Assembly (NCBI RefSeq): GCF_018847975.1
Contig: NZ_CP072597.1
Coordinates: 4,875,001 to 4,939,000, forward strand
Direction of reading: 5' to 3'
From: Lysobacter sp. K5869
GTDB lineage: Bacteria; Pseudomonadota; Gammaproteobacteria; Xanthomonadales; Xanthomonadaceae
Length of the DNA stretch: 64,000 nucleotides
Each line of letters opens with the position of its first letter. The stretch's first letter is position 1. A program made the translations under genes and the position numbers. Below are positions 7,305-16,377 of the stretch, piece after piece. The notes under the pieces are model-generated. The model was not told the origin of the DNA, searched no databases, and saw nothing but the letters and a program-made list of their open reading frames with translations.

Positions 7305-9152
7305 TCAGATATCCCGCACCACGCGGAAGCCCAGGCGGCCGTTGGTGGTGTCGGCGCTGGTGCCCTGCCGCCACGCCGCGCGCGACTGCGCCGGCGAACT
7401 CGACCACGCACCGCCGCGGAACACCCGCGTGCGACAGCCCGGGTTGAACCACGCCGCACCGTCGCGCGGCGCGCGCCGGTAGTTGTCGTGCCAGCAGTCC
7501 GCCACCCACTCGCTGACATTGCCGCCCATGTCGTGAAGGCCGAATGCATTGGCCGCGTAGCTGCCCACCGGCGCCGGCCCCCAAAAGCCGTCGCCGTAGC
7601 CGGGAAAGGCGTTGCGCCAGCGCCGGCCGCTGGGCGAGACGTCGAGCGCGCCGGTCAGATTGCCGGCCTTCGCCGGCGGCGCGCCGTCGCCCCAGGGGAA
7701 ACGGCCCTGGCTGCCGGCGCGCAGCGCGTATTCGTATTCGGCCTCGCTCGGTAGGCGGTAGCGCTGGCCGGTCGAGGCCGACAGCCATTCGACGTAGGCG
7801 GCAGCGTCCTTGGCGCTGACGTGCACCACCGGCAGATTGTCGGCGGCCGGCTGGCCGGCGTAATCCGAGCGCCAGTCGACCCCGCCGCGACGGACCAGAT
7901 TGCCGCTGCGTTCGTCGTAAGCAGTGGAATAACCGCGGCGGGTGGCGCGTGCGCGGTGCTTGCTCGCGCCCATGAAGCGGCGGAATTCGCCGACCGTGAT
8001 TTCGTAGCGCGACACCGCCAGCCCGCGCTCGAAGCGGATGTTGCGCAGCGGCCGCTCGGCGTCGCTGGACCCCGGCTCGCCGGGCTCGGCGCCCATGCGG
8101 AACGCGCCGTGCGGGATCACCACCATCTGCGGGCCGCGGCCGCCCTGGTTCATCGCGTCGGTGAAGATCTGGCCGGGGCGGAACAGGCCGTAGTGGGTCG
8201 CCAGTTCGATCCGCTCGCGCAGCTCGGCCGCGGCCGGATCGCCGGGCGGAGCGATGCGCAGCAAGGTCGCCAGCACCCCGCGCGCCTCGTCGATGCCGCG
8301 CAGCTTGGGCAGCAGGGCGATGCCGTCGTCGCGCAGGCGGCGGATGCGCTCCTGGCGCTGGGCGGCGATGCGGCCCTGGGCGTCGGAGGCGGTGTCCAGC
8401 TTCGGCCGGATCGGCGCCGCCTTGGCCAGCCAGCGCTCGGCGCCGGCGTAATCGTCGCGGTCGGCGGCCAGTTCGGCGCGGCGGATCAGCGCGCTCTCGG
8501 CCGCGGCGATGCCTTGCTGGGCGCGCACGTCGCGCGGCTGCAGCTCCAGCGCTTGGCGGAAGTACGCCAGCGCGCCGTCCGGCTGGCGGTCCTCGCCGAT
8601 GCGCCCGGCGTTGAGCGCGTCCTCGCCGAGGCGGTTGGCCTCCTGCGCCTGATCGGCGGCGTCCAGGCGCTCCAGGAACGCCTCGACCTTGCGATGCTCC
8701 GGCGCCACCGCGCGCGCCACCGCCGCGGCGCGGTGCGCGTCGCGCAGCGCCAGCGGTTCCTCGTCGATGCGCTTGAGCGCGCCGTCGCCTTCGGCCAGCA
8801 ACAGCGCCACCGCGCGGTCCAGCCCGGCGGCGACCGCGCGGTCGTTGGGCGCGAAGCCGCGCAGGGCGAGGTACAGCGGAATCGCCGAATCGGCCGTGGC
8901 GTAGAGATCGCCGGCCTTGAGCGCGGCGTCGGCGCGCTTGCGCTGCGCGGCTTGGGTCTGCTCGGTCACCGTCACCGCCGGCGCGCGCCACGGCGGCACC
9001 GGCGAGACCGCCTGATCCGCGCTCACCGTCACGATCGGCTGGCGCGGCGCGGTCTGCGCGCCGGCGCGCTGGCCGCGCTCGCCGCAGGCGGCCAACAGCC
9101 CGGCGCAGGCCAGGCCGAGGGCTACCGTGCGGATCCAGTGGGTTGCGCGCAA
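7305..9152 (-). CDS. Lipoprotein with TPR-like helices and a C-terminal formylglycine-generating-enzyme fold
   Basis: 615 residues. The N terminus has a lipobox (LLAAC, Cys about 22). Residues 60-330 are Ala/Glu/Arg-rich and look like TPR-type helical repeats. Residues 345-615 are a SUMF1/FGE-sulfatase domain (MVVIPHGAFRMG near its start; GLHDMGGNVSEWVADCW and LGFRVVRDI near the end). The RGG segment where true FGEs carry the active-site cysteine pair reads RGGAWSSSPAQSRAAW, without cysteine, so formylglycine generation is unlikely. Related FGE-fold proteins act in other roles, including kinase-linked and PvdO-like reactions. The real role is unknown. Confidence 0.8.
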   Translation of the reverse strand: MRATHWIRTVALGLACAGLLAACGERGQRAGAQTAPRQPIVTVSADQAVSPVPPWRAPAVTVTEQTQAAQRKRADAALKAGDLYATADSAIPLYLALRGFAPNDRAVAAGLDRAVALLLAEGDGALKRIDEEPLALRDAHRAAAVARAVAPEHRKVEAFLERLDAADQAQEANRLGEDALNAGRIGEDRQPDGALAYFRQALELQPRDVRAQQGIAAAESALIRRAELAADRDDYAGAERWLAKAAPIRPKLDTASDAQGRIAAQRQERIRRLRDDGIALLPKLRGIDEARGVLATLLRIAPPGDPAAAELRERIELATHYGLFRPGQIFTDAMNQGGRGPQMVVIPHGAFRMGAEPGEPGSSDAERPLRNIRFERGLAVSRYEITVGEFRRFMGASKHRARATRRGYSTAYDERSGNLVRRGGVDWRSDYAGQPAADNLPVVHVSAKDAAAYVEWLSASTGQRYRLPSEAEYEYALRAGSQGRFPWGDGAPPAKAGNLTGALDVSPSGRRWRNAFPGYGDGFWGPAPVGSYAANAFGLHDMGGNVSEWVADCWHDNYRRAPRDGAAWFNPGCRTRVFRGGAWSSSPAQSRAAWRQGTSADTTNGRLGFRVVRDI

Positions 9153-11987: not shown

Positions 11988-13580
11988 TCAGCAATCCGGC
12001 GCGACGCGGCCGTCGGAACCGGTGTAGGTGTAGGCGTCGGGAATGAAACGCCCGCTGCCGATGCGGTTCCAGATGTTGCTGGTGCCGTAAGTGCCGGTGA
12101 CGCTGGTGCCGGTGGTCTGGCACTGGATCGTCACGCTGGCGCCGTTGGCGAGCGAATCGACCACCGCATAGCTCGTGCCCGGGCCGGAACGCACGTTGAG
12201 CGGCGAACCGGCGGTGGACACGGTGCCCGGCGCGCCGCTCGGGTTGCCGCCGCCCGGATTGAGCAGCTTGTAGTAGCGCGCCCAATCCCAGTTCTTGCCC
12301 GGGTCGGTGTGATCGTTGCCGCTGTAGTGCTGATGGCCTTTCACTTTGACGCTGGCCGGCAACACCCGCACCACGCTGCCCGCCGGGCCCTGGAACGCGC
12401 TGGAACAGCTGATCGCCGAGTACTTCGCGCAGAAGTGGCGGACGATGCCGGCCGAGGCGTTGTACATCGCGGTGGTGTACCACGAGGCGTTGTCGACATA
12501 GCCTTCGTGCTCGATGCCGAGCGTGGTCTGGTTATGCGAGAGCACGTGATGCGCCGCGCGGTTCTCGCGCACCATCTGGGTGATCTGGCCGTCGCTGCTG
12601 CGCACCAGGTAATGGATGCTGACGTGGTCGGGATTGTTCTGGAACCACGAGATGCTGCCGGCGTAGGAGCCTTGCACGGTGTGGATCGTCGCCGAGTCGT
12701 AAGAGCTGCGCTCGGAGCTGTATGGCGAAGCGACCCACAGCGCCGGGCCGTAGTCCGGGCTGGCCGCCGCGGCGGCGACCTTCGGGTCCTTGCTGCGCAG
12801 CGTCTGCGTGTCGGGATCGACGTAGTAATCCGCGGTTTCGATGCGGTCGGCGTCGGCGTTCAAGCGCAGCAGCGGCGCACGCAGGCGCACCAGCGCGGGC
12901 ACGTCGAACGCGCGTTCCCAGGCGATCTCGCGCGCCGGCACCTTGATGCCGTTGTCGTCGACGCCGCGGTCTTGGGTCAACAAAACGTCGTAGGCGAAGC
13001 TGGTGCGCGCATAGTCGGCGACCGCGCTCTTGGCCGCGCCGGCGACGGGCTTGGCGAAACCGGCGTAACGTTCCAGCGCCGGGCGCAGCGCTTCGGCATC
13101 GGGCTTGCGCAGCGCGCCGTCGCGGCCGATCTCGCGGTCGAGCAGCGCCGCGGCGGCGAGGATGTTGAGCGAGGGTTCGGCGAGGATGCGCGATTCCGGC
13201 ACGCCGAGCAGGCGCGCGGCTTCGCCGACCTGATCGGCAAAGCCTTCGCCGCGGTAGAGGCCCATCACGCCATAGGCGCGCGGCATTTCGCCGCGGCCCT
13301 GCGTTTGGGTCGGACGCAGGTGCTGCCAGCGGCTGGCGACATACGCCAGCGATTCGAGCGTGCCGGCGGGAATCGACGGATAACGCGCATACGCCTGACG
13401 GAAGTACGCGGGCAGTTGCGCGCGTTCGCCGCGCAGCGCGTCTTGTTCGGCGCGCACGCGCGCGCTCAGCGCGGGATCGGCTAACGCATCGGCCGCCGCG
13501 GCGGGCTTGCCGGCATGAGCGGCCGGCAAGCAGGCGGCGGCGAGCGCGGCCGCGAGCAAAGTCCTGGAAAGTGCGGTCAC
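11988..13580 (-). CDS. Secreted N-acetylmuramoyl-L-alanine amidase with SH3 module
   Basis: 530 residues from the GTG at 13580 (VTALSRTLLAAALAAACL), with AAGGAC about 8 bases upstream. In order: a signal peptide ending near AHAG; a helical N-terminal region (about 30-250) with lysozyme-like features (YVASRWQHLRPTQ, LNILAAAALLDRE); an Amidase_2 zinc domain (about 290-440) with IHTVQGSYAGS, GIEHEGY and the ligand segment NDHTDPG; and an SH3_3 module at the C terminus (LNVRSGPGTSYAVV to GRVAPDC). It would cut the bond between muramic acid and stem peptide. It lies 71 bp downstream of the SpoIID gene on the same strand, and their SH3 modules are nearly identical, so the two probably form an operon. 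Confidence 0.88.
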   Translation of the reverse strand: MTALSRTLLAAALAAACLPAAHAGKPAAAADALADPALSARVRAEQDALRGERAQLPAYFRQAYARYPSIPAGTLESLAYVASRWQHLRPTQTQGRGEMPRAYGVMGLYRGEGFADQVGEAARLLGVPESRILAEPSLNILAAAALLDREIGRDGALRKPDAEALRPALERYAGFAKPVAGAAKSAVADYARTSFAYDVLLTQDRGVDDNGIKVPAREIAWERAFDVPALVRLRAPLLRLNADADRIETADYYVDPDTQTLRSKDPKVAAAAASPDYGPALWVASPYSSERSSYDSATIHTVQGSYAGSISWFQNNPDHVSIHYLVRSSDGQITQMVRENRAAHHVLSHNQTTLGIEHEGYVDNASWYTTAMYNASAGIVRHFCAKYSAISCSSAFQGPAGSVVRVLPASVKVKGHQHYSGNDHTDPGKNWDWARYYKLLNPGGGNPSGAPGTVSTAGSPLNVRSGPGTSYAVVDSLANGASVTIQCQTTGTSVTGTYGTSNIWNRIGSGRFIPDAYTYTGSDGRVAPDC

Positions 13581-13651
13581 GGGAAGTCCTTGAAGGAGTG
13601 AGGTGGCGGCGCGCAGCGGGAGCGCCGCGCGCCGGTGTCGCGGCGCGCCGC

Positions 13652-15484
13652 TCAGCAATCCGGCGCGACCCGGCCATCGGAGCCGGTCTGGGTGTAGGCG
13701 TCGGGAATGAAGCGCCCGCTGCCGATGCGGTTCCAGATGCTGCTGGTGCCGAAGGTGCCGGTGACCGAAGTGCCGTTGGTCTGGCATTGGATGGTCACGC
13801 TGCTGCCGTCGGCGAGCGTGCCGACCACGGAATAGCCCGTGCCCGGGCCGGAGCGCACGTTGAGCGGCGTGCCGTTGGTGTCGACCGTGCCCGGCGCGCC
13901 GCTGGGGTTGGAGCCGCCGCCGTCGGAGCGGAACGCGTTGCGCATGCCGGCGGGTTTGTTGTTGTTGTTGAAGTAGTGGTCGGTGATCCACTTCCAGTCG
14001 CGGCCGTTGTTGGCCGCCCAGCGCTGGGTGCCCCACTGGCTCATGCCGCGGCCGTGGCCGAAGCAGCCCTTGCCCTTGCCGACCGAATCGCTGAGGCAGG
14101 GCCAGTTGTTGCGCGGCGAGCCGTTGTTGCCGTTGCCGCAGCTCAGGTCGTTGTTGCTGCACGACAGGCCGTCGCCGGGATCGTCCCAGGCGTTGTTTTC
14201 CGAGGAATATTCGCTGAAGGCCGCGCTCTTGCCGTCGCGGCTGAGGATCACGCCGCGGGTGGCGTTGGCGGCGGCGACCGTGGCCGAGACCGAGTCGGCG
14301 TTGAACACCTGACACGAGGTGGTGTTGCAGATGTCGTAGCGGCTGCTGATCGGATGGGCGACGAAGTACGCGCCGTAAGTGCGGTACGCGACCGCGCCGG
14401 CCGCCAGCGATTGCGCGTGCCACGACGGGATCCACTCTTCGTCCAGCCCCTTGGCCACGTAGTCTTCGAGGCTGTAGACCGACACGCCCGAGCACGAACG
14501 TCCGGAACAGCTGGTGCCGACGCGGATGCTCGACGGCACCGACACCGCGGTGGCCGAAACCTGCGCGGCGGCCAGCGTTTGGCCGGCGCGCATGGCTTGC
14601 CCGGCGTTGTCGGCATCGAGCTTGCGCATGAAGTCTTCGCGCTCGCGCCGCGCCGCGGCGTTGCTGTCGGCCTGGGCGTGCACGCGCTTTTCCACGCTGC
14701 GGCCGCTGCCGCGCTGCAAGTCGACGACGAAGTGGCTGGAATCGTTGACCAGCGACAGGCCGTCGAGGCGTTGCGCGCGATAACCCGGCGCCTCGATGTC
14801 GAGCGAGGTAGTCGGCGGCAACGCGTCGGCCTTGGACGCGTTCTCGGCGAACTTGCCGCGCACTTCGAAGTAGCCGTCGGCATCGGTGACCGCGCGCTCG
14901 CCCAGGCCGCTGCGCACGCGCGCGCCGGCCAGCGGCTGGCCCGTGCGCTGGTCGTAGACGTGGCCGCTGAGCACGCTGCAATCGCTGCATTCGGCGGCTT
15001 TCAGCGCGAGCAGATCGAGCGCTTCGGATTCGCGCTTGGGCGACAGCCACACCGTGGTCGGCAGGCCCAGCGCGTTGTCGGAGTGCACGGTGGTGACGAC
15101 CGGCAGATAGCCCGGCGCGCTCACCGTGAGGCGGTATTCGCCTTGCGCGAGGCCGGCCAGACGGCCGCCGGCGGCGGCCAGATCCAGACGCTGCCGCGCC
15201 GCCGCGCCGCCTACCGGCGCCAGACTCACCTGCGCCGCCAGCGCGCGGCCGCTGACGCTGTCGCGCACGCGCAGGTCGAACGCGGCCGCGGTCGCATCGC
15301 TGCGCACGGCGATGCGCGGCGCGTCGGCCTGCGCGGCGGCGGCGGGCGCGCTCTGGCCGGCGAACGCGCTGCCCATGATCAGGGTGCAGAAACCGGCCAG
15401 CCACGGCAGGCCGCTGCGCGCCAGCGGCGCGGGCGCGGCCGGGTCGTGGCCGGGAAGGGAGTTGCGGGTACGGCGAGAGGTCAT
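13652..15484 (-). CDS. Secreted SpoIID/LytB-domain protein with SH3 module
   Basis: 610 residues. In order: a long signal region (hydrophobic stretch at about 28-42); two carboxypeptidase-regulatory-like beta domains (about 48-130 and 170-255); a helical linker; a SpoIID domain (about 315-515) with YSLEDYVAKGLDEEW, AGAVAYRTYG and the closing GHGRGMSQWG; and a C-terminal SH3_3 module (about 525-610). SpoIID of Bacillus is a lytic transglycosylase that acts on glycan strands from which an amidase has removed the peptides. The neighbouring gene encodes an amidase. SpoIID domains are unusual in Gram-negative bacteria. Confidence 0.88.
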   Translation of the reverse strand: MTSRRTRNSLPGHDPAAPAPLARSGLPWLAGFCTLIMGSAFAGQSAPAAAAQADAPRIAVRSDATAAAFDLRVRDSVSGRALAAQVSLAPVGGAAARQRLDLAAAGGRLAGLAQGEYRLTVSAPGYLPVVTTVHSDNALGLPTTVWLSPKRESEALDLLALKAAECSDCSVLSGHVYDQRTGQPLAGARVRSGLGERAVTDADGYFEVRGKFAENASKADALPPTTSLDIEAPGYRAQRLDGLSLVNDSSHFVVDLQRGSGRSVEKRVHAQADSNAAARREREDFMRKLDADNAGQAMRAGQTLAAAQVSATAVSVPSSIRVGTSCSGRSCSGVSVYSLEDYVAKGLDEEWIPSWHAQSLAAGAVAYRTYGAYFVAHPISSRYDICNTTSCQVFNADSVSATVAAANATRGVILSRDGKSAAFSEYSSENNAWDDPGDGLSCSNNDLSCGNGNNGSPRNNWPCLSDSVGKGKGCFGHGRGMSQWGTQRWAANNGRDWKWITDHYFNNNNKPAGMRNAFRSDGGGSNPSGAPGTVDTNGTPLNVRSGPGTGYSVVGTLADGSSVTIQCQTNGTSVTGTFGTSSIWNRIGSGRFIPDAYTQTGSDGRVAPDC

Positions 15485-15900: not shown

Positions 15901-16377
15901 ATGAACTTCAAGCGTTTCGCCCTGTTCTGCGCGCTGGCCCTGGCCAGCCACGGCGCCCTCGCCTCCGGCTGGACCTCGCTGGGCCGGCTCAACGCGCCGA
16001 CCGGCTTTCCGCAAGCCGACACCTGCAACCTGCGCGTGATCAACCACTACTGGAGCAACAAGCCCATCGTCGTGCCGAGCTCGGTCAACCGCTACGGCCC
16101 GACCAACGTCCAGTACATGTTCGCGCTCGATCTGGCCTCGCTGCGCACCTTCACCAGCAACTCGGTGGCGCTGTCGCGGTTCAAGACCGCGGTCGACGCC
16201 TACAACGCCACCAGCGGCGCCAAGAGCCTGTACGCCAGCCTCAACGTCGGCGATTTCCCGGGCGTGAGCATCAACCTGTCCTATGCCGATTCGGCCGGCC
16301 TCGTGCAAGGCAGCGGCTGGGGCGTGGCCCCGTCGGAACTGCAGTATTACGAACTGCAGGAGTCGTGCCCGCAGTAA
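15901..16377 (+). CDS. Small secreted protein of unknown function
   Basis: 158 residues with a clear signal peptide (MNFKRFALFCALALASHGALA, cleavage after about 21). The mature part contains two cysteines (TCNLRV and ESCPQ at the C terminus) that could form one disulphide, and ends VAPSELQYYELQESCPQ. I do not recognise the family. An AAGGAG ribosome binding site lies 6 bases before the ATG. It is divergent from the SpoIID/amidase genes and may share regulation with them. Confidence 0.75.
   Translation: MNFKRFALFCALALASHGALASGWTSLGRLNAPTGFPQADTCNLRVINHYWSNKPIVVPSSVNRYGPTNVQYMFALDLASLRTFTSNSVALSRFKTAVDAYNATSGAKSLYASLNVGDFPGVSINLSYADSAGLVQGSGWGVAPSELQYYELQESCPQ

What the first reader, a model, noticed from the sequence alone, without database searches (positions are those of the whole stretch)
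11988..15484. A secreted SpoIID plus amidase pair sharing one wall-binding module
Bacillus engulfment uses a two-step machine: an amidase strips peptides from glycan, then SpoIID cuts the bare strands. Here a SpoIID-domain protein and a zinc amidase are adjacent, on one strand, both exported, and both end in the same SH3 module (about 85% identical by eye over some 85 residues). This suggests a secreted, Gram-negative version of the two-step murein degrader aimed at other cells, as Lysobacter is a predator. I know of no description of such a pair outside sporulation.
Basis: partly seen in the sequence, partly recalled or inferred. Interest (0 to 1): 0.75.

Follow-up and report, generated by a model that had tools for sequence, protein, structure and literature searches.

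The report
Secreted two-enzyme cell-wall stripping pair
A soil bacterium carries two neighbouring genes for apparently exported enzymes, one predicted to strip peptides from bacterial cell wall and one predicted to cut the bare sugar chains, which carry matching wall-gripping tails; the same partnership turns up as a single fused protein in an unrelated group, so the two very probably work together.

Summary
Window 13652-15484(-) encodes a SpoIID/LytB-domain protein and 11988-13580(-) a zinc-type Amidase_2 protein, 71 nt apart; both end in an 85-residue SH3 module (72 of 85 identical). A second, paralogous pair lies elsewhere in the genome; 11 of 11 SpoIID genes in 13 sampled genus genomes sit beside this amidase; and in 14 of 14 Lysobacter/Luteimonas loci the partners share a homologous C-terminal module (SH3 in 2, an unnamed ~185-residue module in 12). 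In Chitinophagaceae amidase and SpoIID are one polypeptide (8 of 8 loci; type-IX secretion tail on both fusions scanned), on a distant SpoIID branch (one-clade tree rejected, p 0.007), so the association probably arose twice. Best reading: a secreted, co-targeted two-step murein degrader (amidase, then lytic transglycosylase), in some lineages beside an M23 endopeptidase. Action on other cells is plausible but untested. The claim that no such pair is known outside sporulation is wrong: B. subtilis LytB-LytC is an operon-encoded SpoIID-homologue/amidase pair, and Waddlia SpoIID works with AmiA in vitro. LytB also supplies the main rival: SpoIID partner as amidase enhancer. New here: the amidase class, matched modules that differ between loci, the secreted fusion. 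New variant of a known kind.

The parts
13652..15484 (-). SpoIID/LytB-domain protein, 610 aa
   Evidence: PF08486 4.8e-12; TIGR02669 8.9e-21, 75 bits, under its cut-off of 83.3
15359..15484 (-). putative signal peptide of the SpoIID protein (residues 1-42, ends ...SAFA/GQS)
   Evidence: by eye; not computed
15044..15283 (-). first beta-sandwich (CarboxypepD_reg-like) domain, residues 68-147
   Evidence: AlphaFold model strands; Pfam reports two CarboxypepD_reg stretches
14717..14980 (-). second CarboxypepD_reg-like domain, residues 169-256
   Evidence: Pfam PF13620 at 172-245; model
13934..14536 (-). SpoIID catalytic domain, residues 317-517
   Evidence: many columns invariant in 77 homologues; model matches SleC 9h68 1.6e-10 and SpoIID 5i1t 2.6e-4
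14435..14437 (-). codon of Glu350, aligned to the catalytic Glu101 of C. difficile SpoIID
   Evidence: alignment; role of E101 from PMC6221140 passages; E in 77 of 77
13655..13909 (-). C-terminal SH3 module of the SpoIID protein
13581..13651 (-). 71-nt gap between the genes; AAGGA at 13587-13591
11988..13580 (-). Amidase_2 protein, 530 aa, GTG start
13512..13580 (-). putative signal peptide of the amidase (residues 1-23)
   Evidence: by eye; not computed
12903..13433 (-). lytic-transglycosylase-like (lysozyme fold) N-terminal domain, residues 50-226; by eye the catalytic Glu is replaced by Ala
12294..12698 (-). Amidase_2 catalytic domain; H300, H416, D426 and E357 invariant
   Evidence: (52 of 52 rows); AmpD 1j3g matched at 4.4e-4
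11991..12245 (-). C-terminal SH3 module of the amidase
   Evidence: [quoted passage not shown]

Best explanation
An exported, co-targeted two-step murein degrader. Shown by sequence: an Amidase_2 enzyme with intact expected zinc ligands and a SpoIID-family enzyme with the catalytic Glu are adjacent genes on one strand, each with an apparent signal peptide and the same C-terminal binding module. Inferred: both cross the inner membrane by Sec and leave the cell (in the Chitinophagaceae fusions by type IX, as their sorting tail indicates; in Lysobacter perhaps by type II); the matched modules hold both enzymes on the same wall patch; the amidase strips the stem peptides; the SpoIID enzyme then cuts the bare glycan as a lytic transglycosylase. 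The N-terminal transglycosylase-like domain of the amidase appears to have lost its Glu and probably only binds glycan, so the glycan-cutting step is supplied in trans by the SpoIID partner or, in the fusion, by the SpoIID domain of the same chain. An M23 endopeptidase (cross-link cutter) accompanies the second-type Lysobacter pair and four of five Niastella/Longitalea loci, but not the window pair. The likely substrate is foreign wall (bacteriolysis or scavenging), which is inference.
For: Second paralogous pair in the same genome in reversed gene order (SpoIIDs 56% identical over 475 columns). Genus sample: 8 of 13 genomes have SpoIID, the same 8 have the amidase, 5 have neither; 11 of 11 SpoIID genes lie beside it on the same strand. 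14 of 14 named Lysobacter/Luteimonas loci are paired (these overlap the genomes) and in 14 of 14 the partners share a homologous C-terminal module, 60-84% identical. Fusion transglycosylase-like/Amidase_2/SpoIID in 8 of 80 loci, being 8 of 8 Chitinophagaceae loci, and amidase-SpoIID fusion in 62 of the 120 listed (of 297) proteins of a search seeded with one, amidase first in 62 of 62. SpoIID tree: pairs form one clade (99), fusions sit in the Bacteroidota part; one clade rejected, p-AU 0.0068. Por_Secre_tail on 2 of 2 fusions scanned. M23 next door in 6 of 6 second-type Lysobacter loci and 4 of 5 tandem Chitinophagaceae loci. Catalytic residues kept. Nearest solved SH3 relatives include a GH24 muramidase and proteins named as cell-wall-binding; such a domain of the T. 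saccata muramidase is reported to bind bacterial cells (PMC10394673, section 14).
Against: No activity, export or binding data. LytB, a SpoIID relative paired with an amidase, is tabled as not hydrolysing murein (PMC10653849 passages). The amidase (E 1e-40 or better) occurs without SpoIID in 25 of the 28 non-genus genomes that have it, so it does not need the partner. SpoIID occurs without a detected Amidase_2 in the held flanks in 58 of 58 other loci (the HMM used finds only 4 of 6 Amidase_2 genes of this genome at its cut-off, and 18 of these loci are under 10 kb). M23 is not detected in the two window-type loci, the 6 Luteimonas loci, one of five tandem loci and the 3 Chitinophaga loci, and is present in 2 of the 58 unpaired loci. 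SpoIID is rare: 3 of 147 genomes of the Chitinophagaceae sample, one of the three not fused. The SH3 tree does not resolve where the modules came from. No promoter-like site was found.
Confidence: 0.62

Rival explanations
1. The SpoIID partner is mainly a LytB-like enhancer: it docks on the wall beside the amidase and raises its activity, with little glycan cutting of its own.
For: LytB is encoded in one operon with LytC and facilitates its amidase activity (PMC7176660 passages); LytB listed as not hydrolysing murein (PMC10653849 passages); catalytically inactive SpoIID stimulated SpoIIP in one assay, not replicated in another (PMC6934232 passages).
Against: Glu350, aligned to the catalytic Glu101 of C. 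difficile SpoIID, and the HGRG motif are invariant in 77 of 77 homologues, the following Met in 71 of 77; the best structural match is SleC, titled a lytic transglycosylase. Whether LytB keeps this Glu was not checked, so this does not exclude an enhancer role.
Confidence: 0.2
2. The enzymes remodel the producer's own periplasmic or septal wall, as proposed for Waddlia SpoIID and AmiA.
For: Waddlia SpoIID is septal and acts with AmiA in vitro (PMC6635528 passages). Apparent Sec signals alone would leave both proteins in the periplasm.
Against: Absent from 5 of 13 genus genomes; SpoIID present in 1 of 369 class genomes sampled, the own one; the 2 fusions scanned carry an outer-membrane secretion tail; the SH3 modules resemble solved modules named as cell-wall-binding, one in a muramidase.
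Confidence: 0.12
3. Two independent bacteriolytic enzymes that merely sit together and share a common secretion or binding tail; no sequential action.
For: The SH3 module is also on three M23 peptidases of the genome; the amidase is often found alone.
Against: Fusion of the two activities in another phylum on a different SpoIID branch; module type differs between loci but matches within the pair in 14 of 14.
Confidence: 0.06

Closest known systems
Bacillus subtilis LytB (CwbA) - LytC (CwlB)
   Same: SpoIID-family protein and N-acetylmuramoyl-L-alanine amidase encoded by one operon; the SpoIID homologue resembles the amidase itself as well as SpoIID (title of Kuroda et al. 1992, seen in the reference list of PMC10653849); LytB has three wall-binding domains needed for deposition on recipient cells (PMC7176660 passages)
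   Different: LytC is an Amidase_3 enzyme with CW_binding_2 repeats (recalled) rather than Amidase_2 with a transglycosylase-like domain and a C-terminal SH3 module; LytB is described as an enhancer; Gram-positive
Engulfment complex SpoIID-SpoIIM-SpoIIP
   Same: Amidase, then lytic transglycosylase (PMC6221140 passages); homologous SpoIID domain
   Different: Membrane complex of sporulating cells; SpoIIP is another amidase family (recalled) and no SpoIIP model is hit here; SpoIIM not searched for
Waddlia chondrophila SpoIID + AmiA
   Same: SpoIID works together with an amidase in vitro, outside sporulation (PMC6635528 passages)
   Different: Assigned to the division septum; gene adjacency and a shared module are not mentioned in the passages read
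C. difficile SleC (9h68)
   Same: Best fold match of the SpoIID model (1.6e-10, TM 0.52 on the target); lytic transglycosylase by entry title
   Different: Spore-germination zymogen; no amidase partner known to me
Lysobacter capsici Ami / CwhA bacteriolytic amidase
   Same: Extracellular amidase of the same genus
   Different: 270-residue mature enzyme (PMC12219114, abstract, section 5 and passages); judged by size not the amidase of this pair; sequences not compared

Membership tests
SpoIID/LytB family (PF08486) | Profile match above the curated cut-off | tested here: met
   46.8 bits against 23; the NCBIfam domain model TIGR02669 stays under its cut-off, 75 against 83.3
SpoIID/LytB family (PF08486) | Catalytic Glu and HGxGM signature | tested here: met
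   E350 aligned to Glu101 of 5txu; E and HGRG in 77 of 77, Met in 71 of 77
SpoIID/LytB family (PF08486) | Lytic transglycosylase activity on denuded glycan | not testable with these tools
   needs purified protein
Amidase_2 zinc amidases | Profile match and zinc ligands | tested here: met
   74.2 bits against 26; H300, H416, D426, E357 invariant in 52 of 52; ligand assignment recalled from AmpD
LytB-LytC system | SpoIID homologue and amidase adjacent with a shared wall-binding module | tested here: met
   the same kind of arrangement, different modules
LytB-LytC system | Amidase_3 and CW_binding_2 repeats (recalled) | tested here: not met
   Pfam shows Amidase_2 and SH3_3 on the amidase, no CW_binding_2 on either
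SpoIID-SpoIIM-SpoIIP engulfment complex | SpoIIP as the amidase | tested here: not met
   partner is Amidase_2; no SpoIIP match or 9
SpoIID-SpoIIM-SpoIIP engulfment complex | SpoIIM anchor | not tested
   not searched for
SLT lytic transglycosylases (N-terminal domain of the amidase) | Lysozyme-like fold | tested here: met
SLT lytic transglycosylases (N-terminal domain of the amidase) | Catalytic Glu | tested here: inconclusive
   by-eye motif ETxW/ESxF gives Ala here; hhalign aligned only the later GxM motif
Type II secretion substrates | Passage through the outer membrane | not testable with these tools
   no simple sequence signal (recalled)

The most novel reading that the evidence does not exclude
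Extracellular 'strip, then cut' murein machines evolved at least twice in Gram-negative bacteria by coupling a zinc amidase, whose own transglycosylase domain had lost its Glu, to a SpoIID glycan cutter: as adjacent genes in Lysobacter/Luteimonas, where both partners carry the same, locus-specific binding module, and as one type-IX-secreted chain in Chitinophagaceae; where an M23 endopeptidase sits alongside they form a kit for all three classes of murein bond, used on other bacteria.
Probability: 0.45. Interest if true: 0.75.

Novelty: new variant of a known kind. Interest (0 to 1): 0.6.

Why it matters
SpoIID-domain proteins are found in many non-spore-formers (stated in PMC6635528, passages), where their role and partners are largely open. 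A natural amidase-SpoIID fusion and pairs with matched tails make the question of whether SpoIID proteins need an amidase first directly testable in a soluble, single-chain system, and would add a glycan-cutting step to the bacteriolytic proteases and amidases reported from Lysobacter.

Tried and rejected
Hypothesis that loss of the transglycosylase Glu in the amidase tracks pairing with SpoIID: rejected. 16 of 16 SpoIID-paired amidases read (14 loci, the window, the second pair) lack it (A, M, T or Q), 8 of 8 fusions have A, and the third, unpaired amidase type has E in 5 of 5 readable copies; but of the 123 aligned amidases 92 have Q, 15 M, 10 A, 5 T and 1 E, and unpaired ones have Q. The loss looks older than the pairing. 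The column itself was set by eye.

Origin of the modules: the SH3 tree (15 rows) is unresolved; the tree of the other module (26 rows) hints that SpoIID took it from the partner amidase separately in Luteimonas and Lysobacter, but on weak branches, and a single origin is not excluded (6% of bootstrap trees).

Neighbours of the 58 unpaired SpoIID loci: 99 of 101 flanking ORFs scanned (two over 1500 aa dropped); no family matched more than 2 of 99 (only 25 of 143 families are shown), so no other consistent partner. Phage records: no match. Promoter scan: nothing. The module of the second pair: no Pfam family, only a weak PDB match to 2xom (E 0.033). The amidase model is of low confidence over much of the part from about residue 240 on, so the amidase and SH3 folds were not tested structurally. 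Papers: searches listed no description of a Lysobacter or Bacteroidota amidase-SpoIID pair (titles and abstract beginnings seen; the only SpoIID-and-Lysobacter paper is on a Bacillus); the held library lacks most subscription journals.
Full report
WHAT IS THERE. The finding holds at base level. On the minus strand the window encodes a 610-residue SpoIID/LytB-domain protein (13652-15484) followed after 71 nt by a 530-residue Amidase_2 protein (11988-13580) with a GTG start and an AAGGA ribosome-binding site. Pfam finds the domains; in NCBIfam the SpoIID_LytB domain model matches at 8.9e-21 but below its cut-off, and the SH3 modules match the first 64-67 positions of the GsmA model. The two C-terminal SH3 modules are identical at 72 of 85 residues; their DNA is 86% identical, with third positions at 80%. 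Both proteins begin with what looks by eye like a signal peptide. The neighbour upstream of SpoIID (15901-16377) is on the other strand, so the pair is a two-gene unit by position; there is no transcript evidence and the promoter scan found nothing.

A SECOND PAIR IN THE SAME GENOME. The genome has two SpoIID genes and six Amidase_2 genes. The second SpoIID (L014:7604-9751) directly follows an amidase of the same family (L014:5504-7438), in the reverse gene order, and is followed by an M23 peptidase that carries the SH3 module (L014:9816-10592). Here amidase and SpoIID again end in a common module, but a different one of about 185 residues with no Pfam family. The SH3 module occurs five times in the genome: on the window pair and on three M23 peptidases. 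It is thus a general wall-enzyme tail of this organism, not private to the pair.

CONSERVATION. In a sample of 247 family genomes, 13 are of the same genus: 8 have SpoIID (11 genes) and the same 8 have this amidase; 5 have neither. All 11 SpoIID genes lie beside the amidase on the same strand. Outside the genus 5 of 234 genomes have SpoIID: one is paired (G097); in two (G041, G114) the amidase is on another contig, G114's SpoIID being cut by a contig end; two (G094, G120) have no such amidase. Conversely, 25 of the 28 non-genus genomes with the amidase (E 1e-40 or better) have no SpoIID: the amidase is the more independent partner. In a class-wide sample only the own genome of 369 has SpoIID. 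Among 80 named loci (best 80 of 204) the 14 from Lysobacter and Luteimonas are all paired, and in 14 of 14 the C-terminal parts of the two partners are homologous, 60-84% identical, E 4.2e-49 or better: SH3 in two loci, the other module in twelve. These loci overlap with the genomes and are not an independent count. So in each of these loci, whichever module is used, both partners have it. The window locus is syntenic in L060, L061/L152 and L153.

A SINGLE-CHAIN VERSION ELSEWHERE. Eight of the 80 loci encode the transglycosylase-like domain, Amidase_2 and SpoIID in one open frame of 964-1001 residues (stop-to-stop): all eight Chitinophagaceae loci (Niastella, Longitalea, Chitinophaga), and none of the five other Bacteroidota loci. 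The two fusions scanned also carry CarboxypepD_reg and a C-terminal Por_Secre_tail, the type IX sorting domain. A protein search seeded with a fusion lists 120 of 297 hits; 62 of the 120 have both domains, amidase first in 62 of 62, whereas 0 of the 120 listed (of 263) in the search seeded with the window protein do. In the SpoIID tree (91 rows) the Lysobacter/Luteimonas pairs form one clade and the fusions lie in the Bacteroidota part, with many unpaired lineages between. Holding pairs, fusions and tandem copies together costs 50 log units, p-AU 0.0068 (the labels were set before the tree was built, the test was chosen after seeing it, and the tree is a quick one). The simplest reading is two independent origins of the association. 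In a Chitinophagaceae sample SpoIID is rare, 3 of 147 genomes including the centre G247; G247 is fused, G325 looks fused by ORF sizes, and G273 is not, with no amidase found in 16 kb. M23 genes sit next to the pair in 6 of 6 second-type Lysobacter loci and beside the fusion in 4 of 5 tandem loci, but in 0 of 2 window-type loci, 0 of 6 Luteimonas loci and 0 of 3 Chitinophaga loci; 2 of 58 unpaired SpoIID loci have one. The M23 profile was built from three sequences and may miss some. By contrast 58 of 58 unpaired SpoIID loci show no Amidase_2 in the DNA held, even at E of 1; the profile misses 2 of 6 Amidase_2 genes of this genome at its cut-off, and 18 of those loci are under 10 kb, so this is a soft negative.

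HOW IT PROBABLY WORKS. Fusion, adjacency in two duplicated loci, and matched modules make joint action on one wall patch the best inference. The known chemistry of the families (amidase releases stem peptides; SpoIID cuts the bare strands; PMC6221140 and PMC6635528 passages) gives the order. Waddlia SpoIID, however, also acted on intact sacculi, so a strict need for denuded glycan should not be assumed. The LytB precedent leaves a real chance that the SpoIID partner mainly boosts the amidase. That the target is other cells rests on the secretion tail in one lineage, the accessory distribution and the predatory lifestyle recalled for Lysobacter; it is not shown.

AGAINST WHAT IS KNOWN. In B. 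subtilis LytC and its activator LytB share an operon, LytB has three wall-binding domains, and donor LytB reaches recipient cells of other species and can activate their LytC (PMC7176660 passages). A 1992 paper's title already describes that modifier as homologous to both the autolysin and SpoIID (reference list of PMC10653849). Waddlia SpoIID with AmiA is a further case. What I did not find in print is the Amidase_2 version, the secreted fusion, and the matched, locus-specific modules. By size the amidase is not the described L. capsici Ami, a 270-residue mature enzyme. Hence: new variant of a known kind.

Noticed in passing
L014:5504-9751 (G000:C1, about 1.68 Mb): Second amidase-SpoIID pair, gene order reversed, both partners ending in a ~185-residue module without a Pfam family (weak PDB match to 2xom).
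   Followed up: yes
L014:15907-17514(-): Third related amidase near the second pair, not adjacent to a SpoIID gene, in which the transglycosylase-like domain keeps Glu at the expected place; an amidase of this type lies near 6 of 6 second-type Lysobacter loci.
   Followed up: partly
L113:5889-8813, L116:7887-10898, L123:5071-8205, L129:7860-10859, L139:5760-8801: Open frames with two SpoIID domains in tandem just downstream of the amidase-SpoIID fusion; the second domain groups with the fusion's SpoIID, as if copied or converted within a genome.
   Followed up: partly
L015:6475-7305 and 7464-8261: Two adjacent M23 peptidases carrying the same SH3 module.
   Followed up: partly
window 15901-16377(+): Small apparently exported protein (by eye) without a Pfam match, divergent from the SpoIID gene and conserved in DNA in the syntenic loci L060, L061 and L153.
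   Followed up: partly
window 7305-9152(-): Protein that by eye is a lipoprotein with a formylglycine-generating-enzyme-like (sulfatase-modifying) domain.
   Followed up: no
genus sample: The 8 genus genomes with the pair are 5.1-6.3 Mb and the 5 without it 4.4-4.7 Mb.
   Followed up: no
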